Both the position numbers and the translations under genes were made by a program. Positions 29-22,519 of a DNA stretch of 64,000 nt are shown here, one piece after another (position 1 is the first letter of the stretch; each line of letters starts with the position of its first letter). Below the pieces are notes generated by a model. It had not been told where the DNA came from. It searched no databases and saw only the letters and a program-made list of their open reading frames with translations. Location of the stretch: positions 66,607,337 through 66,671,336 of the forward strand of contig OZ035997.1 in the NCBI GenBank assembly GCA_964035015.1, written 5' to 3'. This DNA comes from Corallium rubrum (taxonomy: Eukaryota; Cnidaria; Anthozoa; Scleralcyonacea; Coralliidae).

Positions 29-1660
29 TTACTCTTTAACTTCGTTCGGTAGCATATTCCAGTATTGGATAACCCTGCGTTTAAAAAAATCCCCATTTTT
101 ACCGACTGATGGACTTGATATGGGTAATAAATTTCTTCCAGATCTCAAGGTGCAAAACATTGTGTGACCATAATCCACAAAACCCTTTGTAATCTTAAAG
201 GTTTCAATCAGGTCCCCATGAGCCCCTCGCTCTAACAATGTAGCAAGCCTCAGTTTTAACAGTCTTTCCTTATATGACAATGCTTCAAGCCCTGCAATGC
301 ACTTCGTGAATCTCCGTTGACAACCTAACGTAAACGTAACGTAACCTAACCTAACCTAACCTAACCTAACCTAACCGAACCGAACCTAACCGAACCTAAC
401 CGAACGTAACTGAACCGACCGTAACCGAACCAAACCAAACCAAACCAAACCAAACCGAACCTAACCACTTTATTTACTGAGGGTAAAACACATGACAGTA
501 AAGTATTGATAAACTTGTTATTGATAAACTTGTTATTGATAAACCTCCAAGGCTCATAATATAAGCCCAGTTCCCTCTTCTTAATGTGGGTGACCACACC
601 TGCACACAATATTCCAAATGAGGTCTAATTAACAACTTATATAACAGAAGCATCACCGATCTTTATCTTGAAACAGTGTTGCAAAGAACCCATCCGATTG
701 TGCAGTTTGCCTTCCAATAGCCTTCTCTATCTGCTCTTTCCATTCACAATAATGATACATCGTCACACCAAAGTCAGATTCATGCAATACTGACTCAAGA
801 ATATTACCACTAAAGAAGTAGTCATGATTTGCATTCGCTTCACCTATGTGCATAACATAGCATTTGCTTACATTAAACGTCATACACCACTTATGCTCCA
901 GTTGGATAGCCCATTTTTGTTGCCTTGGATATCGTCCGGAATAGCTGCATTTCCAATGAGTTTAACATTGTCGGCAAATAATTTAGTAGATGCTTGTACA
1001 GAATCTGGTAGGTCATTGGTAAAAAGTAAAAATAACAATGGCCCCAATACCGATCTTTGGGGGACTCCTGACGTAACCGTTTCCCATGACGAAGTAACCT
1101 TTCCCACCGGAACAGTCATCCATCTATTGGACAAAAAATCCTCAACAATTTTCAATACCTTTCATGTTATGCCAAATGATTCCAATTTGATAAGTAGCCT
1201 ACCATGAGTTAGGTTCTGAGTTAAAGGCTTTTTTAAAATCCAATAAATCAAGTCTACTTGATCTCCCCTTTCCATTGCCTCAATTAGTTAGTCCAATGTT
1301 TCCAACAAAGTAGACAAGCAGGACCGCCCATTCATAAAACCATGTTGCTTAGGCATCACGTATTTACCGGCATGATCTCAACAGCTTCTCATACAGTTTA
1401 TTTAATATACATGTCAATGAAATTGGACGATAATTCGCTGAATCTAAACCTTCTTGATGCACTACACTCCCAAGGGATTCTCTTACTGGGCACGCCTTCA
1501 GCTGTGCACTTCTGAGCAATAATCGGTACACTATTATTAATAATTTAGTCACTTTAGCGTGAAATTCCGTCCACATACCTTCAATGTTGTCATCAGAGCT
1601 AGTTTGAAAATCTAATTCAAATTGATTCAGAAAGAAATATGATCTACGATTACGTAAGCT
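29..1660 (-). mobile_element. CR1/L2-like LINE, decayed reverse transcriptase 3' part
   Basis: Reading the minus strand from 1576 to 29 gives reverse-transcriptase blocks in the right order but in different frames. They are NYRPISLT (about 1400), SGVPQ.SVLGPLLF.L.NDLP followed by FADN in place of the catalytic FADD (about 1000), FNV.KC..MHIG (about 850), LYKLLIRPHLEYC..VWSP (about 620) and a C-terminal end with GDLIETFKI and FFKRRVIQYWNMLP (29-300). The family is established as the CR1/L2/jockey-like group of non-LTR retrotransposons. The frame changes, the altered FADD box and a repeat array inserted near 303-470 show it is dead. The endonuclease and ORF1 are absent or unrecognisable. Confidence 0.85.
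303..470. repeat. Degenerate CCTAA/CCGAA/CCAAA 5-bp array
   Basis: A pentanucleotide array runs through AACCT, then AACCG, then AACCA units with occasional changes. The AACCT part equals (TTAGG)n on the other strand, a known telomeric repeat of arthropods. Here it is short, drifts in sequence and sits inside the LINE, where RT coding resumes at about 302 with QRRFTK. It is therefore an interstitial microsatellite rather than a telomere. Confidence 0.8.
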
Positions 1661-1662
1661 AA

Positions 1663-2015
1663 ATGAACACCGACCAGATTGTTCATGCTCTTGAATTAGA
1701 TTCTATCACAGGAAAAATATTTTGCGGCGTCTTTGCATCCGACCAGCTACCCAAAGTCATTGAAAATTTCCTGTGTGGATTCCTAGCAAACACAGACCCA
1801 AGCAACAAACCAGGAACACATTGGGTTGCGTTCTACTTACTATCAGAACACAAGGGACAGTACTTCGATAGCTACAGCAACCCTCTGGCTATTATAACGA
1901 AACATTTAAACATTTAGACCACCATGCTGTCGAGTGGAACTTTAACACGCGTGAATTACAAACTATTTGGACAGATGTATGTGTGCAATATTTGTTTGTT
2001 TTACCTAAGTCATAA
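1663..2015 (+). pseudogene. Adenain-like cysteine protease relic (virus-like/Polinton-type)
   Basis: The reading starts at an ATG at 1663 and shows the order expected for an adenovirus-type maturation protease (Ulp1-like, C5 family). A Gly-Thr-His-Trp-Val-Ala box holds the catalytic His (about residue 53), FDSYSNPL holds the acidic residue, and a later DVCVQY segment in another frame holds the likely Cys. Such proteases are found in Polintons/Mavericks, adintoviruses and related endogenous viral elements. A frameshift near 1895-1905 separates the His/Asp part from the Cys part, so it is broken. It converges on the minus-strand virus-like ORFs at 2296-3103. Confidence 0.7.
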
Positions 2016-2295
2016 AGCACGTGGACACAGTTTGTCAATAAACAGTTTTATAAGTCGAAAAAAATGTCAGGTGAGAATCAGTCTAGTAAGAAGTTAGTTG
2101 AAAAATTAAGAAACCAATAAACACTTGTAACACTTTTTAAAAAATAAAACTTTATTCGTTCAATATTGACTTGTTTTTTCATCTTGACTCGAGCACTGCA
2201 CTCGTCCAGTCGTTTCTTCCCACACAGAACGACAACAAAAGACTGATAATTTTGAAAACAATTCATTAATTTATAATAAAACGTTTACATAAAGA
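2016..2295. other. Gap between convergent virus-like ORFs
   Basis: This short AT-rich interval lies between the protease relic on the plus strand and the two ORFs on the minus strand. It probably holds the facing 3' ends and polyadenylation signals (AATAAA-type motifs near 2118 and 2144). No further gene is visible. Confidence 0.4.
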
Positions 2296-3103
2296 TTAAT
2301 ACTTATGCCGGCGTGTTTTTGGTGTTCCCTTTGACTTAATTATTTTGGCATGCATCTGTCTCTTCGGAGGCATTAATAAATATCTGTAAGGACTCCCGTG
2401 CAGTGGACTTGTGTAAATTAGTTCTTCATCTTCTGACGTGGATTCAATTTGTGCCTGTCTCCATCTTTCATCATTTCTCACAAGATCTTTAGTCATATTG
2501 ATCTTTGATAAAACTCTAAATAATTCCTTTGAACCAGTGGGATTGAAATTTTTTCTCCCTCTCCCAGTGTCGCTTAGTAGAGCTGAAATATTGGACCCTT
2601 GGATATCCTTACCATCCAACTTTACTTGACCGGTGTATCCCACGATATAACGTTAGGATAAGCTTTTAATCTGTTCAAGATGGACACGGCCGTTCACGCA
2701 TAGTTTTAGGTATAGAATCGACAATAACTGAATTCCTTAATGATGTTTCTCTTGACGCTCCTGGTTTCTCTTCAACTGGGTTGTTAGGGTTAAACGTTGT
2801 ACTATTAACATTAATAGTGGGGAAATCGTTGTTCTTTTGATGTTTCAGGTTCAAATATTGTTCAAGATTTGTGTAATATAGTTTTTTCTTTTCATCGTCG
2901 GCCATGTCTGTACATCTCAGAACACTGTCCATATTCTCGTTGATGTTCATAAGATCTGTGACAAGAGGCGTAGTTTCTTGTTTTTGTTTTTGTTTTTGTT
3001 TTTGTTTTTGTTTTTGTTTTTGTTTTTGTTTTTGTTTTTGTTTACATTCGAGTCTGTGAAGTGTGTCTTCTGGAACAAGAACCATGCGCTTGAAATGGCT
3101 CAT
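2296..3103 (-). pseudogene. Virus-like element hypothetical protein, split in two frames
   Basis: Two minus-strand reading frames lie end to end. The upstream one (3103-2675, 142 aa) has an internal Lys-Gln dipeptide run and a helical stretch with DDEKKKLYYTNLEQYL. The downstream one (2643-2296, 115 aa) has KLDGKDIQGSNISALLSD and a basic C-terminus. From memory, proteins with the pattern 'DDEK.LY...L..YL' followed by 'dG..I.GSNI..LL.D' occur as one ORF beside adenain-like proteases in animal virus-like elements. The two parts are therefore probably one protein broken by a frameshift near 2645-2690. The function is unknown. A homology search of both parts would settle this. Confidence 0.5.
2979..3043. 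repeat. GTTTTT hexanucleotide microsatellite inside an ORF
   Basis: About eleven near-perfect 6-bp units lie in frame in the 142-aa minus-strand ORF and encode alternating Lys and Gln. Because the unit is a multiple of three, length changes keep the frame. Confidence 0.9.
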
Positions 3104-3344
3104 TTTGTAAATAAACTGCTCAACACGTTAAGGACTGGTGGTAATAAAACTGATAAAAGGTTCCCTCCTTTTTGATTGAGAACGCGTTTTTTTATTTCTT
3201 CGAGAGACTTTCTTATTTGCTAAGACACAGAGATATTTTTGTAACGATGCAGTCTTTGCTTTTGATTATATGTCAATTGCGTGACACCTTTAAGTAAGTT
3301 TAAGCATCACTCACATACATATTACTAAGTCGGTAGGTCCATGT

Positions 3345-3640
3345 TAAACTAAAACTAAACTAAACTAACCTTATTTATACTGGATAACTCTATCAATTAA
3401 ATCTAAACTGTTATCCTCAGAGATCCAGTAAGGGCCCACTCTCATTGCTCCAGTGTTACTACAGTAGGAAACCGGAGTACCCAGAGGAAACCTGTGGTGT
3501 TTAGTAGAGTCAAACTGGAAGCACTCTTCTCACATGTGGCCAGGGTGGGAAATTTTTTAATCAGATAACTGCACCGTGCAGGAATCGAACCTGGGTGGCA
3601 GAGGTGAAAGACACGTGGACTAACCACTGTGCCACCATAA
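3345..3640 (-). mobile_element. tRNA-derived SINE
   Basis: Read on the minus strand, the element begins near 3640 with GGTGGCACAGTGGTTAG (RNA polymerase III box A region). It continues to GGTTCGATTCCTGC (box B) about 45 nt later. A body follows with a CTGGGTACTCCGGTTTCCT stretch, a motif shared by several animal SINE families, and then a 3' tail of TTTAG-like repeats near 3345-3370. tRNA-like head, body and simple tail are the hallmarks of a SINE. The apparent protein reading across this region is an artefact. Confidence 0.85.
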
Positions 3641-3649
3641 AATAATCTT

Positions 3650-4440
3650 TCGAACTTTTGGTTTGCTTTTTGCAAGAACATGCAAGTACGGTAGATTGTC
3701 TCTCATCCGCTTAGACAGTGAAATGACGAGAACTATGATGCAGACTTCATTTAAGTATGTTTTTGAACATAAGCAACCTGTCGCTCATTCGGGTCGTAAA
3801 ACGACTCCAGCAAATAGTTGACATGCTTTGGGTACATTTGTCAAGCCAGAGTTGCGATACCTAGTTAATCCCTTGGGTTTTTAATGACTATAATATAACA
3901 AGACGCCCGCTAGGCGTCAACTCGGGCTACTGAGCATGGGCAATGGGCATGGCAATGACTGTGGAGAAAGAGATTGGTGGAGGAGGACATGTTAGAAAGC
4001 TAGTCAGAAAGCACACTCACTTGTTTTATAAAGAACATTTTTCTATTGACTACTATTATAAACTTACATGCATGGACAACCTAGATTGGGACAACATAGA
4101 ATTCATATACTGAAAGCCATCATGACATTGCTCTGTATATCTCGAACTATATGTACGGTATTGTGACATTTTGTGTACATATTACACTTTAATATTTTAG
4201 TTGTTAATAAACTGTTTAGATGGTGTTCACAGATCTCACATAATGATATCTGAAGTCATTCATTTTAAAGGCCGCAACAGCATTATCAACAGCACTGCTC
4301 ATGCTATATATCAAGTTAGTATCACCATGTTCAATTGTACATAGTTTTGGCATTCTTACATATAAATTTGGTGTTCACGTATACTGTATAACTTTGGCAT
4401 TGATACATATACTTTTAGCATTTATAAATATTGGTATTCA
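3650..4440. other. No gene recognised
   Basis: AT-rich intergenic sequence. No long open frame, TIR pair or recognisable element end was found. A GC-richer patch near 3900-3970 has no assignable identity. Confidence 0.4.
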
Positions 4441-4499
4441 TATACATTGGTATTCATATTGGCATTAATTGGGGTTGTTCTTTTATTAGTACCAGTTAC

Positions 4500-5150
4500 G
4501 TCAATTAATTTTAATACCAGAGTAATAAATTGGTGGTTGACGGTTTCATAGTCCAACTCACAACTCCAAATATCTTGCTGTTTGATTAATACCAGATATG
4601 TCAATGTTATAAAGTCATTTAATACCAGAGTTTTATAATAAATTGGTGGTTGACTCACAACTCCAACTTTGCTCCTTCATTAAGTCATTTAGTACCAGAG
4701 TAATAAATTGGCGGTTGACGGTTTAATAGTCCAACTCACAACTCCAACTGTGTGGTCGTAGAAGCCATTTACTTCAGATGCCACTGTTAATTTGTTTGCT
4801 CCTTCATTAATACCAGATATGTCAATGTTATAAAGTCATTTAATACCAGAGTAATAAATTGGTGGTTGACGGTTTAATAGTCCAACTCACAACTCCAACT
4901 GTGTGGTCGTAGAAGCCATTTACTTCAGACACCAGTGTTAATTTGTTTGCTCTTTCATTAATACCAGATATATCAACGTTATAAAGTCATTTAATACCAG
5001 AGTAATAAATTGGTGGTTGACGGTTTAATAGTCCAACTCACAACTCCAACTGTGTGGTCGTAGAAGCCATTTACTTCAGACATCAGTGTTAATTTGTTTG
5101 CTCCTTCATTAATACCAGATATAACAATGTTATAAAGTCATTTAACTCAT
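4500..5150. repeat. 151-bp tandem repeat array (about four copies)
   Basis: The block CAGAGTAATAAATTGG recurs at about 4696, 4847 and 4998, exactly 151 bp apart, with degenerate copies on both sides (4510 and 4630). Each unit also carries GTGTGGTCGTAGAAGCC and TTCATTAATACCAGATAT. It lies just beyond the 3' (low-coordinate) side of the Helentron. Tandem arrays are common at or in Helentron ends, but no terminal sequence proves it belongs to that element. Confidence 0.85.
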
Positions 5151-5445
5151 AACTTCAACAGCATATCAATATTGCTGAGGCTTTTCATGATTCTACCAGA
5201 TGTTTAATTTTATCTAAAACATGAAGCAGAGAGAAAATAAGTGGGTTAAAAAGCAATTAAGCTATGGATGCATGGGAACTTTGCAATATTAAAGGACATT
5301 TACATAAGTATACTTTTTTACTTACATTAATTTGTTGTCCAATGGTCCAGGTTGTCCAGGTGTTCAAGTCCTTTTCAGGACAGAGGCACCGAGTATACAG
5401 TAGGTGCATCATCCCAAGTACAAGTGCAGTGTAACTGCACTAGTT

Positions 5446-5676
5446 CAGGGGTGGACCATTAGAAATCTCGGGAGGGGGTAAAAAAATTATTTCTAAGCCT
5501 GACGTTTTTTTTCTCCTACGTAAGCTCTGCAGGATATTTTGTTTTTGGACAATAAAGGAAAGTTGTAAACAGTTTGCCAGTATTCTCTGTATATTGCCTG
5601 CAGGATTTTTTGATCACTTTCCCTTGCACAGGAATTGTCACCCCTTCCCTGCAAGATTTCCAATGGCCCACCCCTT
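5446..5676. mobile_element. Possible hAT-like MITE
   Basis: The left end CAGGGGTGGACCATT and the right end AATGGCCCACCCCTT are approximate inverted repeats of the CAGGGGTGG type seen in hAT non-autonomous elements. No convincing 8-bp target duplication was found, so ends and class are tentative. Confidence 0.45.
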
Positions 5677-5833
5677 ATTGATAAGTATGGTTTGTGAATA
5701 TGGATCCATGGATCTCTGAGGAGACTATGCACATATGGTGTAAGATAAACTTGCTTGATAACAATTGCCAGAAAGATATAACTACATATAATTAATATAA
5801 TATTTCAATTAATGTGACAGATATAATTATTCC

Positions 5834-6460
5834 CTAGTTGCAATATTGTACTACGATTTTGATAGCATCATGATCAGAATAATACACATTGACTACATAA
5901 TTGTCAATTATTTGAAATACTGTGGATCTAACATACACATGGTCTAATAAGCTACCAGAAGAAATAAATGTAGGTTTTGTTACAATCTGAGTGTAATTGA
6001 GAGATTCCATTAAAGATTTTAGTGGATGAACTTGATTGTCATTCAAGTAATTGATATTAAAGTCACCAAGAATCACGTCAATTGTATAACTATTTAACAT
6101 GTATCCCAAACAATCTACATATTGTAGGATGTTGGAGGCTTGCTTTCGATACAGCAAAAGAAAAGTTTTTTCTTGGGATTTACTATTAACCAGGTCAAAC
6201 TTTAGTGCATTTAGTGAAGAAAAATATTCACACTCTCTGATTTCTACAGTATTTCTTTTGCAAAGTGCCATACTTGAATATTTATCAGTATCATGATCTT
6301 GACGGTGGAGTTTGAAAGGACTGAGATTATTTAAAATTTCATTGTCAAAATCCTGAGGTAGTAGTTGGGTTTCAGTAAGAGCTATGACATCACTATTGAA
6401 AACTCTTGAATCAAATTTAATATCGATGCTATGTTTTTTGAGAGATCTTATATTTAAAAG
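5834..6460 (-). pseudogene. Helentron EEP endonuclease domain
   Basis: This is the C-terminal part of the Helentron protein. In order it reads LNIRSLKKH (about 6455), TETQL with the catalytic Glu (about 6375), GDFNIN (about 6070), LDHVY (about 5935) and SDHDAI (about 5860). These are the diagnostic boxes of the endonuclease/exonuclease/phosphatase fold, and all catalytic residues look present. It is separated from the helicase by a frame change near 6460-6470. In Helentrons this domain follows the helicase and is thought to help target-site cleavage. Confidence 0.8.
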
Positions 6461-6464
6461 TGGA

Positions 6465-7776
6465 TATGGTCAAAACATTGAAATTGTCTTGGAATAGAGT
6501 TGTTGAATGTGGAACCATACATCCATTGCGTAGTCTTTGGTATTCTTCAAGAACTTTAGGATTTGCTTTAATATGTTTACTCTGAATTTGTCCTAAAATA
6601 TACAGACCTTGTAAAGAAGTTGCACGGCTTAAGGCAACATAAATTTGTCCATAGTTAAATGCTCTCTGTTTTGTCAAGTCAGAACTGATTACAACTTTTT
6701 CAAGTGTTAGACCTTGAACCTTATGTACAGTACATGCCCATGCAAGTGTAACAGGGAATTGTACTCTGGAGAAGATGCTTTACCTGGTCTTATTTTGATC
6801 TTTGCTAATACAGGCTCAATGGGAACTACATTGTTTTCTCTTGCAAAAGGGCTGCCACAAGTGTTAGTTACGTCTTTACCAGCATTTGAGTCATCAAATT
6901 TAATATAGAGAACAGTTGGTTTTTGGTTATTTTGATTGACATCAACTTTAGAGACAGTTCCCATTTGTCCATTGATGAGTCTATCTGGAATACTGATATT
7001 TGTTGTAAGCATTACTCTAGCACCTTCTTTAATCAGAATTTCATAATCTAGTCCACCTGTTTCAGACCGTCCTTTTGCTAATACTCTATCAATATCTTGT
7101 TTCCTTACATTTGTTGGATACTGATCTTTAGCTTTAAGAATAAATAAAGATCCAGAAAGTTTTTCTAGTTTTGTCTTGTTATGTTCATCTACAGGAGCAT
7201 TTTCAGCCCAGATATGAAGTGCATCTGATGGGTAATTAGGATCAGATGGGGTTATTGATCTGGATTGGATTATCTTAATGTCATCTTCTGTTTGACTAGC
7301 AGTTCTTACTCTGTTAAGAAGTTCAATAAATGCTTGGTCATTTTTCTGTCTCATGATTTTATTAAGTTCTATCATTTTGAAGACTTTCCATGGATGGCAT
7401 AGATTATAAGAATCATTTTTGTAAGTGGCAAATACAAATCTCTTACGTATTGGTGGAAGTTGGCATAGATCACCTACAACTATAATAGTAATTCCTGCAA
7501 ATAACAGAGAACTTGTGGTGCCAAATATTTATTTTAATCTTTGGTGGATATGTAGTAAGGTTGTGTTTCCAACCATAGAAATTTCATCTATTATTATTAG
7601 CTTTAGGTCAGATAATGATAGTCTTAATTGTGTTTTCTTTTGGTCTGACATTGCAGGTACATTATCACCAGTTTCTTTGGGAATAGCAAGACCAGTATTT
7701 ATTGTTGTTCCATCAATGTTTATTGCAGCTACACCTGTTGCTACCATGAGAAGAACTGTTGGTAATTCCGGGTTAA
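6465..7776 (-). pseudogene. Helentron PIF1-family helicase, C-terminal two thirds
   Basis: Read on the minus strand from 7776: ATGVAAINI.GTTI (motif Ia region), LIIIDEISM (Walker B, about 7580), a VGDLCQLPPI box (motif III, about 7470), LNKIMRQ (motif IV region), a VMLTTN box, then VHKVQGLTL and YVALSRATSLQGLYI (motifs V/VI, about 6620-6700). This is the 5'-3' superfamily 1B DNA helicase of Helitrons. Frame changes near 7530, 6780 and 6465 interrupt it. The Walker A segment lies 20.8 kb away at 28.6-28.7 kb because of the CACTA insertion. Confidence 0.85.
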
Positions 7777-7784
7777 TACACTGT

Positions 7785-8490
7785 TATTTTGTGGTAGTTA
7801 AAACAACTACAACATTGTAGTAATTTTAACTACTTCGAGTGTAGTAACTTTATTTTAGTTATTTTAACCACAATTTTGTAGTTAAAACAACTATTACCAT
7901 AGTTATTTTAACTATCGAGATGTAGTTACAATATCATAGTTATTTTAACCACAACTTTTTAGTTAAAATAACTATTGACATAGTCAATTTGACTACAGTT
8001 TATGTAGTTACTCTGTCCTAGTTATTTAACTACATTTACCCAAGTTGTAGTAATTTTAACTACAGCTTATGTAGTTACTCTGTCCTAGTTATTTTAACTA
8101 CCCATTTTTAACTACATTTATACCCAAGTTGTAGTAATGTTAACTACAGCTTATGTAGTTATTCTGTCCTAGTTGTTTTAACTACCCATTTTTAACTACA
8201 TTTACCCAAGTTGTAGTAATTTTAACTACAGCTTAATTTAACTACCCATTTTTAACTACATTTACCCGAGTTGTAGTAACTTTAACTACAGCTTATGTAG
8301 TTACTCTGTCCTAGTTATTAAGTTGTAGTAATTTTAACTACAGGTTATGTAGTTAAGTTGTAGTAATTTTAACTACAGCTTAATACATTTACCCATGTTG
8401 TACTCTGTTCTAGTTATTTTAACTACCCATTTTTAACTACATTTACCCATGTTGTAGTAATTTTAACTACAGCTTATGTAGTTACTCCCT
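7785..8490. repeat. Left subterminal repeats of the CACTA element
   Basis: Many copies of GTAGTTA and its complement TAACTAC occur, often as palindromic pairs around TTTT (GTAGT-AATTTTAACTAC). Longer sub-blocks such as TTATGTAGTTACTCTGTCC recur. The same motif fills the right end. By analogy with EnSpm they are probably transposase-binding sites; this is inference. Confidence 0.8.
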
Positions 8491-9140
8491 CCTTAAAATT
8501 TTAAGTAATACGCATATAATAATACTTTGACAAAGTATTTGACAAAAACAAAACAGGCATATTTTTAGGTTCGGCCAGGATCATTAATTTTTAATAACAG
8601 TTAACACATGTAGTGATATTCTGGTGGTGATCATTGATCATGAAAAATAAAGCCATTATCACTCTGATACATATTGCATGGTGTTACTTTATCAAATTAT
8701 AAAATTTTGAAAAGATCAATAAAAATGCACTTATTACACAACTTTTTAAATTAACAAGAGGCCTGTTTACTTGCAAATTCTGGTTTTAGGAGGTGTCCAA
8801 TTTCTTTTTAAAAAACTTCAAATGAACATGTTCGTAAAAACAAGATTTTAAGGTTTTTTTTGAAAAATAATCACAGACATTTTGGTAAACAAGTCAGCTG
8901 GGTACAAGCTGCTGTTCATCCCGGCAAACTCTGAAATGAACACATAAAATCCAGCCAGGTTACAGTTAACCAGGCCATTCCGAATAGCCAGACTGCATGG
9001 TTCATATGAACACCCCCCTTAGATACATTAGATAAGTGGAAGCACTGTGGACTTCCCAATCAGAAATTGCATATGTAAATAGGCCTTACATGTACATGTA
9101 CATAATAAGGCATGTTACAGTATGTATGTACGGTAGTTCA
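8490..9140. other. CACTA left internal noncoding segment
   Basis: AT-rich sequence between the subterminal repeats and the transposase stop codon. It should contain the transposase 3' UTR and polyadenylation site (AATAAA near 8646 on the plus strand is the wrong orientation; the minus strand has several A/T-rich candidates). No ORF was recognised. Confidence 0.4.
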
Positions 9141-15558
<6,418 letters not shown>

Positions 15559-15847: not shown

Positions 15848-16344
15848 ATGACTATGGTAAATATAACTATTCCTTCTTTAATCGTTGTTGATTGAATTCG
15901 TAAGAATGTTATTTATAATAATATGCCTCTTGTGTATACTATAGCTAATACCGTCTCGTGTCATTACTGTCATATGTAATTGTCTAAAATCGATCCTTAT
16001 TGATCTTGGCTTTATTATGAAAGCAATCAAAGCATCCATATGAAATTGTTTGTTATTAGACAACGTGTCCCTCACCTTCGTGGGATTTTTTTATGATTAA
16101 TACAGGTTTTCGATCACGATCTTTACGACTGTCTTGTTGCCGCCGGTGTTCGCGAAGACACGTTAAAGAAACTCGAAGACGATGAGGGGAGTAACTATAG
16201 AATACCCCGCAAATTCACAGCACCTTTTAAAACCCCTATCTACGACCATTTTTGTGTTCTTTATTCTCATTACATCACATTCTTACAATATTTTACGACC
16301 TTCGGCACAAATTCTGTACCCTCGTACAAACTAAAGATGCAAAG

Positions 16345-16436
16345 TATGCCTACGCGACCTACGCGGCCTACGCGGCCTACGCGGCCTACGCGGCCTACGC
16401 GACCTACGCGACCTACGCGACCTACGCGGCCTACGC
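16345..16436. repeat. 9-bp minisatellite CCTACGCGR
   Basis: About ten tandem copies of CCTACGCGG or CCTACGCGA near the left end of Merlin. It is GC- and CpG-rich, unlike its surroundings. The Ala-Tyr-Ala reading through it is a by-product of the 9-bp unit. Confidence 0.9.
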
Positions 16437-16799
16437 CGTAAACAACAGACTCTCTGCAGTCTGCAGCATATACCTAGATAGCCTACGCTGCCTACGGGTG
16501 TACGAAGTAAACATGCAACAAAGTTTGTTCAAACTATGCCCACATGGCTGATGTGACAAATCAGACCTACACCACATAAACACACTTATATCCATATAAA
16601 TTTGAACTATTCGCAGCAACTACCCAATACAACGACACTTTTTGACTCACTCGGAAACCGTTCGTTCCGTTTAATTTTATTAATTACGACTTAAACCGAC
16701 TTGTAGTAAAACTTGCATATAGTAGGCAAAGTATTAAACAGCAGAGCTATGCATGCAGGGTTATATTAAATAAAAATTTATAAATTGCAATGGAACGAT

Positions 16800-18815
16800 A
16801 AACCCTAAACCTAATCACAAATCTGGGCCCTTTGTGGTATGGAAAATTACGATAACCTGACCCCCATACAATGGAACCATGGAGCGTAACCCTCATCACA
16901 AATCGGGGACATTGGGGTATGGAAAATTAGGATTACCTCACCACCATACAATGGAACCATGAACCCTAACCCTAATCGCAAACCGGGGACCTTTGTCGTA
17001 TGGAAAATTACGATAACCTCACCACCATACAATGGAACCATGAACCCTAAACCCTAATCACAAATCGGGGACGTTTGTGGTATGGAAATATTACGATAAC
17101 CTGACCCCGATAAACGGAACCATGGAGCGTAACCCTAATCACAAATCGGGGACGTTGGTGGTATGGAAAATTACGATTACCTCACCACCATACAATGGAA
17201 CCATGAACCCTAACCCTAATCACAAATCGGGGACGTTTGTGGTATGGAAAAATTACGATAACCTGACCCCCATACAATGGAACCATGGAGCGTAACCCTA
17301 ATCACAAATCGGGGACGTTGGTGGTATGGAAAATTACGATTACCTCACCACCATACAATGGAACCATGAACCCTAACCCTAATCACAAATCGGGGACGTT
17401 TGTGGTATGGAAAAATTACGATAACCTGACCGCCATACAATGGAACCATGCACCCTAACCCTAATCACAAACCGGGGACGTTTGTGACACTGAAAAATAA
17501 AATTACCTGACTCCCCCCCCCCCCCAATGGAACCATAAACCCTACCCTTAATCACAAATCGGGGACGTTGGTGGTATGGAAAATTACGATTACCTCACCG
17601 CCATACAATGGAACCATGAACCCTAACCCTAATCACAAATCGGGGACGTTTGTGGTATGGAAAAATTACGATTACCTCACGACCATACAATGGAACCATA
17701 AACCCTACCCTTAATCACAAATCGGGGACGTTGGTGGTATGGAAAATTACGATTACCTCACCACCATACAATGCAACCATGAACCCTAACCCTAATCACA
17801 AGTCGGGGACGTTGGTGGTATGGAAAAATTACGATAACCTGACCCCCATACAATGGAACCATGGACCGTAACCCTAATCATAAATCGGGGACGTTGGTGG
17901 TATGGAAAATTACGATTACCTCACGACCATACAATGGAACCATGAGCCTTAACCCTAATCACAAATCGGGGACATTGGGGTATGGAAAAATTACGATAAC
18001 CTGACCCCCATACAATGGAACCATGGACCGTAACCCTAATCATAAATCGGGGACGTTGGTGGTATGGAAAATTACGATTACCTCACGACCATACAATGGA
18101 ACCATCAGCCTTAACCCTAATCACAAATCGGGGACATTGGGGTATGGAAAATTACGATTACCTCACCACCATACAATGGAACCATGCACCCTAACCCTAA
18201 TCGCAAATTGGGGACATTTGTCATATGGAAAATTACGATAACCTGACCGCCATACAATGGAACCATAAACCCTAACCCTAATCACAAACCGGGGACCTTC
18301 GTCCTATGGAAAATTACGATAACCTGACCGCCATACAATGGAACCATGAACCCTAACCCTAATCACAAATCGGGGACGTTTGTGGTATGGAAAAATTACG
18401 ATAACCTGACCCCCATACAATGGAACCATGGACCGTAACCCTAATCACAAATCGGGGACGTTGGTATGGAAAATTACGATTACCTCACCACCATACAATG
18501 GAACAATGAACCCTAACGCTAATCACAAATCGGGGACGTTTGGGTATGGAAAATTACGATTACCTCACCACCATACAATGGAACAATGAACCCTAACCCT
18601 AATCACAAATCGGGGACGTTTCGGTATGGAAAATTACGACAACCTGACCCCCATACAATGAAACCATGAACCTTAACCCTAATCACAAACTGGGGACGTT
18701 CGTGGCACGGAAAAATACAATTACCTGACCCCCCCCCCCCCCCCAATGGAATTATAAACTCTACCCTTAATCACAAACTGGGGTGTTTGTGATATGGAAA
18801 ATTACGATAATGTAA
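16800..18815. repeat. 81-bp satellite array inside Merlin (about 24 copies)
   Basis: The GGGGAC block recurs at 17067, 17148 and 17229, spaced 81 bp, and the array runs for about 2 kb. Each unit carries CATACAATGGAACCATG, one or two CCCTAA hexamers and CAAATCGGGGACGTT. Two variant classes (..GATTACCTCACCACC.. and ..GATAACCTGACCCCC..) alternate in places, suggesting a higher-order 162-bp organisation. Two units contain long C runs (about 17513 and 18731). Translations across it are artefacts. Confidence 0.92.
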
Positions 18816-18978
18816 ACATTGTAGAGCGCCGTGCCACTCTTTTCACAGCAGCAGAACAGGTATTCTATACTTTATAGCAAAAGTTTGAAACTGGCCTTCC
18901 ATTCTGCAATTTAATATTCACATAACCATACACATTCGCCCTAGCCCGCCTATCCATTACACACACATTATCTCAGTC

Positions 18979-20732
18979 TTAAATGTTTTTAGACAGGAAA
19001 AAATCTTTATCTACAAATCCTTTCTGAATTAATCCGTCTCTCATCCCTGACGTTACACTACAATGAGTATCAATGTGATACCGAGCCCCATATTCTTCAA
19101 TAGATATTACATTCGCATTGGAAGGAACGCCTTCTGGTTTGCACTTGATGAAGAAAACGGTTTCTTTGGAGCTTCTAGGAGGACGAAAAGATACCACTTG
19201 TCCATATCCAACTTCTGCCAGCTCACGGACAGTTTCTTCAAATTCGGAACAGCTTGTCATCCTCAGCCTTCGACTTAATGCCTGTTTAAAGCCTCTGAAA
19301 GTTACAATCGGCCCAGGAAATCTTAGCACCGCTATCTTTCTGTCAGCTGACGTTGGCTGCTTTTTCTCACTCTCCAGATGACCACTAGACAACGTGTTGA
19401 CAAACTAAAAACGATACATACATAATATTTAAACAAAATGATGATAAATACAAAAATTTAAATATGAATCAAACCAAACTTAAACCCTGACCCCAAGCCA
19501 AACTAAATAGCGACCTATTGCTCATAAAAAACGTCCGCACCCAGACGCAAAGCTTCGTTTATACGGCACACTAAAAACCTATATTACAATTGAACACTTA
19601 CATCCACAATGACTTCCTTCTGAGCTAAGGAATACTCCAGAAAATTAAGGACTTTCCTTACAATGTCCACACCCACATCTTTAGCTGGCACACCCGGTTT
19701 TCGTCCACGAAGAAGTTTACCTGTGATGTGATTAAACACATGCAGGCTCACAGCCAGCCGTTGCAACAAGTCGACTTTTTTTTATTTCGGTCCAACCACT
19801 CCATCTTTCACCGCTGTGTTCAGACTTTCTATGAATTCTCCTTCTAACGCCATGAGCATTTTCAAAGCGCTTTCGGTAAACGAGTACACACGTTTGGATA
19901 AATGCTCTTCTCTCATAGCCCAGAAAATCTCCTTAAAACTATCCACATGCATCTCTGCTATTTCTTGTCTGGCTGCGCTCGTCTCCTCTGGAGAAGGCCT
20001 AAGACAAGACGGAATACAGAACAGAAAGCGATCTATGAGCCCATGTCCCTGATCAAGACGACCAATTATATGTGCAGCGAACGGCATTTGAGTAGTTCCC
20101 AAAATCCCAAAAGGTACATTGGCAGGTATTTCCCTTGTCTTTTCACTTGCATATCTAAAAGAAGTTCTTTCTCCTGAAAACAGCTCGCATAGCATTTGAA
20201 CTTCGCCCGAACCATTTTCTTCGTCATTTTTAAGCATTTTGTTCAAGACGTCGTATAGCTCAGGAGAAAGTACCATTGCTTTATTCTCTTCAGATAGTAC
20301 TTTCACCAATGCCGCCGAAGTGCACCGTTCGATGACAAAATTCCCAATGTCACAATTATCTCGAAGCAAAATAAGCGGGTCTACTGCACATTCTTTCATA
20401 GCAGGCGATTTGCCAGTAGTAGGAGGACCGATAATCATTATGTACAAGTTACATGGAAAACGCTGACCTCCGTTCAATATCGACGAGTTCAGTCCGACAA
20501 CAAATGACGAAGTACTAAGTAAGCAAGGTACAAAATATCCAATACACGAGCTCATTGACACAGCCTTCTTTCGGATAAAATTATATACGTTTTCAGGAAA
20601 CAATTCTTCATAATCGTAAGGCATCAACATAAGACGACGATGCAAATCTGCCCATGTATTTTCATGCTGTCTCGCTAATTTCGCTTGCTTCGAACACGCC
20701 ATCTCAAACCCAAAGAACTCATAGGGCTTCAA
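18979..20732 (-). pseudogene. DUF3987-like P-loop ATPase carried by Merlin
   Basis: The main exon (20732-19782, 316 aa to its stop) contains GPPTTGKS at residues 102-109 (Walker A), a MVLSPELYDVL segment in the Walker B/DUF3987 position, GILGTTQMPFAA and GLIDRFLFC at 231-239. This resembles DUF3987 proteins, a RecA/AAA-like group often linked to primases or replication. The same frame continues past a TAA at about 19782-19784 to 19605, then GATGTAAGT gives a splice donor. The last exon (about 19410-18979) ends with a stop. The TAA is the only clear lesion. It is divergent from the Merlin transposase, with 478 bp between. Function in the element is unknown; assistance to transposition or replication is speculation. 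Confidence 0.65.
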
Positions 20733-21210
20733 TTAAGTGAACGAATAGACTATTTTCATAAGGGCGTTCTCTCTAAATATTCTTTTATGGACATCTAAGT
20801 GAGCCTTTCTCGCCTCGTTATGAACATTCCTTTCAATTGCAGACACATACAAAGAAGGCGGGAAAGGCGGATTACAATACACATAAAAGAATATTCAAAT
20901 TGCACCCTTTGTGGTGTATGGACCTTTCAAAAGTCTTAACCACAGTTTTCCATCTTAAGTACGCGTGATATTCAGCACGCCAAATTCCCCCGTTAACTAA
21001 ATCAAACAACTTTCCTTCTCACGAGACTCTCAAATATGCTAATTATATCAAAAACATAATAGTGCTTCGAAATGCTAACTATGCTCATGTATACCAGCAA
21101 TATTATGCAAGTCGTCAAACATATTTGTATTAATTATTTCAAGCCATTCTTTACTGAAGAAGACGCAGCTAAATGACTTTTATGCAAAATTCACTTCGTA
21201 TAACCACAAT

Positions 21211-22259
21211 ATGTACCGAGTCAAAATCAAACGAAATATTGCGATTCAAGTTGGAACCACAATTAACACGGAAAACAAGACTACTCAATGCGAAGAACAT
21301 AGCAAAACAAAACTAACAAGTAGCTACCAAAGGAAACTAAGCCGAAATCCTGAAAATCATTTAACATACGATGAGTTGGTAGAAAACTTCTTATGTGACA
21401 AATTGTCAACGATCAACTGGCTAAAAGACATCGGATTATTGGCAAGCCAAGTATTTTGCCCTACCTGTAACAAACCGATGCAGTGGACACCATGCGAAGA
21501 CAGGTCGGATGGTTTTAAGTACGAGTGTCGTCAAACTGGCACAACCAAGCGTCACAGAGTAGAACGTAGTATTCGAGCTGGTAGCTGGTTCGAAAAGAGC
21601 AATCTAACGCTAGAAGAAATACTTAAGCTTACTTACTGGTGGTGTGCGGATCTCCGTGAAAATCAGATCAAAGCTCAACTACAGCTCAGTGATAACACAA
21701 TAGTGGACTGGTGTATGTTTTGTCGAGAGGTTTGCGAAACGTGTATCGAGAGAGAAAGCAAGCAAATCGGAGGAGAAGGAATAAGAGTGCAAATAGATGA
21801 GTCCAAAGTCGGTAAACGCAAATATCACCGAGGACATTTCGTCGAAGGTCAATGGGCTTTTGGAGGCATAGAAGAAGAGTCCCGCAAATGTTTTATTGTA
21901 GCCGTTGAAGCCGGACTGAAAAAACATTGCTTGCCTTAATACAAAAATGGATAAAACCAGCAAGTATAATTATTTCCGATTGCTGGAAAGGGTATATCAA
22001 TCTAAGCAAACACGGCTATACCCACGAAACTGTCAACCATTCAAAAGAATTTGTCAATGACAAGGGAGATCACACAAACAAAATAGAAGACCATTGGAAA
22101 CAACTGAAATCCAGTTTGCCCACTCATGGCAGAAGAAAACACCACTACACTTCATATTTTGCCGAATTTATGTGGAGATACGTTCACAAGGAACGAGATT
22201 TATTTTGGGTGTTTCTTGAACATGTCAAAACTATTTATAATCCTCAAACAAGTCAATAA
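21211..22259 (+). pseudogene. Merlin (IS1595-type) DDE transposase, one frameshift
   Basis: From the ATG at 21211: an N-terminal zinc-binding segment (FCPTCNKPM.W..C, about residues 88-102), a helical segment, then VQIDESKVGKRKYHRG (first Asp), the GQWAFGGIE block, IIISDCWKGY (second Asp) and HTNKIEDHWKQLK, with FAEFMWRY near the end. This is the order of the IS1595/IS1016-related Merlin transposase. A single frame change near 21910-21930 separates the GQWAFGG part from the ISDCWKGY part. Length (about 345 aa) fits the family. Confidence 0.85.
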
Positions 22260-22519
22260 AACTTTTATAACGTGTACAATAATACAGTACTTGGGTGTTA
22301 ATCATTTGTTCCCATACCTAAATACCTAATTTTTTTCTTTCGCTTTTCACGTACATCTTTAACCGTGAAAGTGCGTAGGCTTGTAGGCTGTCCATAACTA
22401 CTTTTCACTTATGCGGGGCATTCTATAGTTGTACCCGATGAGGTATCTATACTGCATGTCTATAACTAAAGTCAGATTAATCGTTGATTTTGGTTGCCTT
22501 GCGTACATTATTTAATATA

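What the first reader, a model, noticed from the sequence alone, without database searches (positions are those of the whole stretch)
16180..22443. Merlin transposon carrying a DUF3987-like ATPase gene
Perfect 8-bp duplications and matching TIRs bound a 6248-bp unit that holds an IS1595/Merlin transposase and a divergent P-loop gene (GPPTTGKS, GLIDRF). Merlins I know of encode only a transposase. A conserved two-gene Merlin would be a previously undescribed, or at least little described, arrangement. The single TAA in the ATPase and single frameshift in the transposase suggest recent decay.
Basis: partly seen in the sequence, partly recalled or inferred. Interest (0 to 1): 0.85.

Follow-up and report, generated by a model that had tools for sequence, protein, structure and literature searches.

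The report
Merlin transposons carrying an MCM-like helicase
A mobile DNA element in an animal, probably a coral relative, carries a second, conserved gene for an ATP-driven DNA motor resembling replication helicases next to its transposase, and the same pair recurs in related elements.

The parts
16180..16187 (.). target-site duplication CGATGAGG, left copy
16188..16211 (+). terminal inverted repeat, ATPase side
   Evidence: its 18-base core occurs 41 times in the genome at up to 1 mismatch, against 0 for the reversed control
16348..16436 (.). about 10-copy 9-bp tandem array (GCCTACGCG and variants)
   Evidence: also present in copy L023
16775..18810 (.). 25-copy array of an 81-bp repeat between the ATPase gene and the inverted repeat
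   Evidence: also in L021 and L023
18979..19404 (-). ATPase gene exon 2: 141 aa, winged-helix-like C-terminal domain, stop included
   Evidence: intact relatives continue into it; fold from the full-length relative P0205
19405..19601 (-). intron of the ATPase gene (GTAAGT...TTTTTAG), phase 0
   Evidence: no transcript seen
19602..20702 (-). ATPase gene exon 1: DUF3987 MCM-like AAA+ domain, 366 residues plus one in-frame stop
   Evidence: fold from relative P0002
19782..19784 (-). in-frame TAA, shared by L021 and L023
20703..21210 (.). 508-bp intergenic region between the two divergent start codons
   Evidence: coordinates by arithmetic
21211..22259 (+). Merlin/IS1595 transposase, about 348 aa, one frameshift near 21909-21939
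22412..22435 (-). terminal inverted repeat, transposase side
22436..22443 (.). target-site duplication CGATGAGG, right copy

Best explanation
This is a decayed copy of a two-gene Merlin transposon. A divergent gene pair encodes a DDE transposase and a dedicated DUF3987 AAA+ ATPase with a C-terminal winged-helix-like domain. Shown: the ends, the gene pair, its recurrence across deeply diverged families, and sequence constraint on both genes. Inferred: the ATPase assembles as an MCM-like ring or similar motor on element DNA, guided by its winged helix, and moves along or unwinds DNA during transposition, most likely in copying or processing the excised or nicked element, as MCM-like helicases of bacterial mobile elements are thought to do. 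My confidence is about 0.95 in the two-gene lineage and about 0.5 in the helicase role.
Against: No activity was measured. The clade lacks the Walker B aspartate (S-x-E instead of D-E), so hydrolysis may be altered. Merlins without the ATPase exist here (L041, L042), so the gene is not needed by every Merlin. Of the copies fetched, only the window has both repeats, both genes and a perfect duplication: L023 has both repeats but differing flanks, L021 lacks its ATPase-side end, L022, L025 and L038 show one end only, L024, L026 and L039 none. Two clade members (L038, L039, fragments) have no transposase nearby. Of the five shared contigs only the 12.8-kb one proves close neighbourhood. Codon comparisons are not independent, rest on few changes in close copies, and are saturated in distant ones; L023's transposase is only mildly constrained (0.67). 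A shared fold does not prove unwinding.
Confidence: 0.6

Rival explanations
1. The ATPase is a transposase regulator of the IstB/TnsC/MuB kind: it binds target or donor DNA in an ATP-controlled way and recruits or activates the Merlin transposase, without acting as a helicase.
For: It is dedicated to a DDE transposase and stays with it over long divergence. The Walker B aspartate is missing, which could favour switching over processive hydrolysis (inference). AAA+ partners of DDE transposases are established in bacteria (PMC11208146, outline and abstract read).
Against: The fold and domain order point to MCM and phage replicative helicases. The model has two short strands just before the sensor-1 strand, where MCM has its pre-sensor-1 hairpin; that this hairpin marks the helicase group is recalled.
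Confidence: 0.25
2. The ATPase is cargo: a passenger gene, as in bacterial IS1595-family elements said to carry passengers (recalled), that helps the element or host in some other way, such as silencing escape or antiviral action, and plays no part in transposition.
For: Merlins without it exist in the same genome. DUF3987 proteins also sit in other repeated loci without a Merlin transposase.
Against: Head-to-head arrangement in all 7 loci, and correlated divergence over up to about 65% ATPase difference.
Confidence: 0.12
3. The ATPase gene is a separate element nested in this Merlin copy, or the linkage is a chance or assembly effect.
For: DUF3987 genes are repetitive in this genome.
Against: Same order and orientation in 7 loci of one genome, in families sharing only about 40-57% ATPase identity with the window; both family repeats enclose the pair in L023 too; no inner ends found; other contigs share both genes.
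Confidence: 0.02

Closest known systems
Merlin superfamily (IS1016/IS1595-related eukaryotic DNA transposons; PMC8101967)
   Same: IS1595-type DDE transposase, repeats starting GG, 8-bp duplication, internal tandem repeats (paper: abstract, introduction and passages read)
   Different: A second, conserved gene for an MCM-like DUF3987 ATPase. That paper's main text has no DUF3987, ATPase, helicase or passenger. The extra ORFs in the passages seen overlap the transposase; for one the authors assume chance.
DUF3987 (PF13148) proteins of phages and bacterial mobile elements
   Same: Same Pfam domain and closest predicted folds
   Different: Here in a DNA transposon of an animal genome, in a clade lacking the Walker B aspartate, with a winged-helix-like C-terminus; no primase domain in the Pfam scans
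MCM replicative helicases, and the MCM-like SCCmec helicase cited in PMC5862659 (passage)
   Same: AAA+ fold with helical lid; a winged-helix-like domain follows
   Different: 11-16% identity in the 50 rows, no Pfam MCM match, nothing aligned to the MCM N-terminal domain in the rows shown; unwinding untested
IS21 IstA/IstB and Tn7 TnsC type transposase-ATPase pairs (PMC11208146, abstract)
   Same: DDE transposase with a dedicated AAA+ partner
   Different: Other transposase family, eukaryotic host, MCM rather than IstB/TnsC rows among the structural matches shown

Membership tests
Merlin superfamily | DDE_Tnp_IS1595 catalytic domain | tested here: met
   PF12762 E 3.7e-18; relative P0062 passes the NCBIfam IS1595 cut-off, 95 against 75
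Merlin superfamily | 8-9 bp target duplication | tested here: met
   CGATGAGG at both ends; L045, a unit with the same repeats, has AAAAGAAA; L023 lacks a match
Merlin superfamily | Inverted repeats of 24 bp or more starting GG | tested here: met
   24 bp, 20 identical, both start GG; definition from PMC8101967 introduction
DUF3987 (PF13148) | Pfam score above the curated cut-off | tested here: met
   66.5 against 27 bits; 88.2 for P0002
MCM helicase family | MCM sequence family match | tested here: not met
   No Pfam MCM hit up to E 1 for the window protein or 0.1 for P0002, P0205, P0186 and P0222
MCM helicase family | MCM-type AAA+ fold with lid | tested here: met
MCM helicase family | Canonical Walker B Asp-Glu | tested here: not met
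   S-x-E; none of the 110 of 130 relatives with a recognisable motif has Asp; the other 20 are mostly fragments or variants
MCM helicase family | DNA unwinding | not testable with these tools
   needs a biochemical assay
IstB/TnsC-type transposase regulators | IstB/TnsC-type AAA+ fold | tested here: inconclusive
   not among the 50 rows shown in each search, which does not exclude it

The most novel reading that the evidence does not exclude
An old lineage of eukaryotic Merlin transposons carries its own MCM-like ring helicase and moves by a replication-coupled or ATPase-licensed mechanism, rather than by simple transposase-only cut and paste, with the subterminal tandem arrays as loading or recognition sites for the winged helix.
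Probability: 0.35. Interest if true: 0.9.

Novelty: new variant of a known kind. Interest (0 to 1): 0.72.

Why it matters
Merlins are usually described as elements with one transposase gene. A conserved, constrained AAA+ motor in a eukaryotic DDE transposon would be a eukaryotic parallel to the ATPase-assisted transposons of bacteria, or show replication-coupled movement. It also gives the uncharacterised DUF3987 domain a defined, testable partner, and open full-length relatives exist for such tests.

Tried and rejected
Searching viral contigs for the ATPase, as one protein and as a profile, found no relatives (3 and 142 pattern matches, none confirmed). Searching solved structures by sequence gave no convincing match (best E 0.24 and 0.018); only the fold comparison was informative. 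A nested-element explanation was rejected because the pair recurs in diverged families and no inner ends were found. The idea that the stop codon is private decay was rejected. A general scan for inverted repeats with duplications around the window, L021-L026 and L038 gave only low-complexity or weak top hits; ends were then found with the window's repeat as guide, and none were recognised for L024, L026 or L039. No Merlin ends were found for L041, L042 or L043. Family-level genome counts (DUF3987, IS1595, DUF6729) were asked for but did not complete. Short-contig length coincidences (1336 and 1623) are at chance level and were not used. On re-checking, the match of L021 to the window runs 140 bases past the right end; the L021 side there is pure AT repeat and only 78 of 140 bases agree, so I take it as a low-complexity extension, not shared flank.

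Full report
WHAT IS THERE. The unit runs from 16188 to 22435 between perfect CGATGAGG duplications and has 24-bp inverted repeats with 20 identical bases, both starting GG. No other pair in the window at 500-15,000 bases meets the same criteria, and 20 block-shuffled windows gave none. Scanning the 474-Mb genome for the 18-base core of the repeat with up to 1 mismatch gives 41 sites, against 0 for the reversed control pattern. From the left: a 9-bp array, a 25-copy array of an 81-bp repeat, a minus-strand DUF3987 gene, 508 bp of intergenic DNA, and a plus-strand IS1595/Merlin transposase.

GENE MODELS. The ATPase starts at 20702. Exon 1 ends at 19602 before a GTAAGT donor, and exon 2 starts at 19404 after TTTTTAG, in phase 0. 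Relatives continue across this junction: P0186 (Exaiptasia), P0210 (Dendronephthya), P0222 (Holothuria), and the 502-aa P0204 and P0205, which supports the intron. One TAA interrupts exon 1. Three copies in this genome share it: the window, L021 and L023. P0001, a 99% identical database protein from a 1,220-base contig, ends at the same residue. It therefore predates their dispersal; the elements either moved with a truncated protein or were helped by other copies. The transposase keeps the D, D and E motifs of its relatives but is split by one frameshift; in L021 the same gene is an open frame.

PAIRING IN THE SAME GENOME. Searching the genome with the ATPase gave 36 matches, which I group into 30 places. 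I read 10-kb stretches around 20 of them besides the window; 9 places of distant families were not examined. With the window, 9 loci belong to the close clade (full genes or fragments). Seven of them have a Merlin transposase next to the ATPase in divergent orientation: the window, L021, L022, L023, L024, L025 and L026. L038 and L039 are ATPase fragments without one. None of 12 fetched loci of more distant DUF3987 families (L027-L037 and L040, about 18-27% identity) has one. By Fisher's exact test, 7 of 9 against 0 of 12 gives p of about 0.0003 (my arithmetic). Searching with the transposase gave 28 matches, which I group into 17 loci. Eight are paired, counting C1:19.0 Mb, where only pieces of the ATPase remain. 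Nine are not known to be paired: for two of these (L041, L042) I read 5 kb of DNA and found no ATPase; the other seven were not fetched, and have no ATPase match nearby (the closest is a distant-family one 30 kb away on C196). Merlins without the gene therefore do occur.

THE ATPASE LIES INSIDE THE ENDS. The same inverted repeat stands on the ATPase side in L022 (2 mismatches), L025 (5) and L038 (5), and at both ends of L023 (0 and 0); in the 13 loci L027-L037, L039 and L040 no site came below 8. With flanking DNA in the query, the similarity of L023 to the window stops exactly at 16188 and 22435, as expected of transposition. However, the 8 bases flanking L023 do not match each other, the ATPase-side end of L021 was not found, and no ends were recognised for L024, L026 or L039. 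Around the ATPase gene itself a scan gave one weak inverted pair (12 of 15) without a duplication.

PAIRING ELSEWHERE. The protein database gives no genomic context, but it lists contig lengths. ATPase hits came from two searches (51 of 51 and 120 of 130 listed), transposase hits from one (120 of 407 listed, 118 with a length). Among 61 distinct lengths of at least 10 kb from ATPases and 48 from transposases, five agree to the base: 12,777; 132,598; 188,493; 759,742; 1,000,656. Randomly jittered lengths give 0.0066 on average and never more than one in 20,000 trials. Only the 12.8-kb contig proves close neighbourhood. Distances between ATPases and between transposases are correlated over 11 pairs (r 0.86) and over 9 pairs without the near copies L021 and L023 (r 0.64, p 0.0001); the smallest transposase overlap was 70 residues. 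L024 and P0209/P0124 are mutual nearest neighbours on both sides. In the transposase tree the paired loci fall in both main groups of the midpoint-rooted drawing. This fits an old pairing with losses, though 15 of the 29 rows have unknown pairing status.

SELECTION. For close copies, dN/dS of the ATPase is 0.29 (window and L021; 5 synonymous and 5 nonsynonymous changes) and 0.46 (window and L023); for the transposase 0.35 and 0.67. In every comparison of the 6 loci (15 of 15 for each gene), nonsynonymous divergence per site is below synonymous; the comparisons are not independent, and distant pairs are saturated at synonymous sites, so only the inequality counts. Open ATPases of about 502 aa exist in clusters of 4 to 97 member sequences (P0204-P0207).

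MECHANISM. Shown: a constrained, long-lasting gene pair inside transposon ends. Inferred: the ATPase is a DNA motor of the transposition process. I favour a helicase acting on element DNA because fold, domain order and nearest relatives are replicative, and because DUF3987 was predicted as a mobile-element helicase by the authors of PMC5862659 (passages read). A regulator of the IstB kind (PMC11208146, outline and abstract read) is the main rival, helped by the missing Walker B Asp. Subterminal arrays lie beyond the ATPase gene in the window, L021 and L023 (81 bp) and between gene and repeat in L022 (8 bp, 15.6 copies); L038 showed none there and L025 only AT-rich repeats. They might be binding sites; equally, tandem arrays occur in several Merlins (PMC8101967, passages).

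NOVELTY. The Merlin survey PMC8101967 (abstract, introduction and passages read) describes the group by repeats, duplication and transposase, and its main text has no DUF3987, ATPase or helicase. My ten literature searches (open-licence papers only) listed no report of a Merlin with such a gene; Repbase and subscription papers were not searched. I rate it a new variant of a known kind.

ORIGIN. Named ATPase relatives are sea anemones, an octocoral and sea cucumbers. Two unpaired transposases of this genome match a Dendronephthya protein at 85-88% over its C-terminal part. An anthozoan host, perhaps an octocoral, is likely but was not tested directly.

Noticed in passing
L045 (G000 C1:24188200-24194500), unit 170-6168: A 6.0-kb unit bounded by this family's inverted repeats with a perfect AAAAGAAA duplication, but without transposase or ATPase matches; it holds duplicated virus-like reading frames, one with a packaging-ATPase-like P-loop (my reading, no family search).
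   Followed up: partly
L028:4596-5747 (-) and 7684-9900 (+): A distant DUF3987 ATPase stands head to head with a 739-aa protein with a weak DUF6729 match (E 8.7e-5, below cut-off); possibly another transposon type with the same kind of ATPase.
   Followed up: partly
L029-L031, L032-L034, L035-L037: Other DUF3987 families are repeated, mostly at 93-99% identity, over several kb; L032 and L036 also show a separate downstream winged-helix-like exon. What carries them is unknown.
   Followed up: partly
G000 C1:15174244-15174488 and C150:761-1005: Pairs of facing family repeats spanning 245 bp, probably short non-autonomous relatives.
   Followed up: no
P0238: A 46% identical DUF3987 protein is filed under a gammaproteobacterial metagenome assembly on a 2.7-kb contig; possibly animal contamination.
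   Followed up: no
window 20776-20895: Imperfect inverted repeat of two 40-nt arms (75% complementary) between the two divergent genes; could be regulatory.
   Followed up: no
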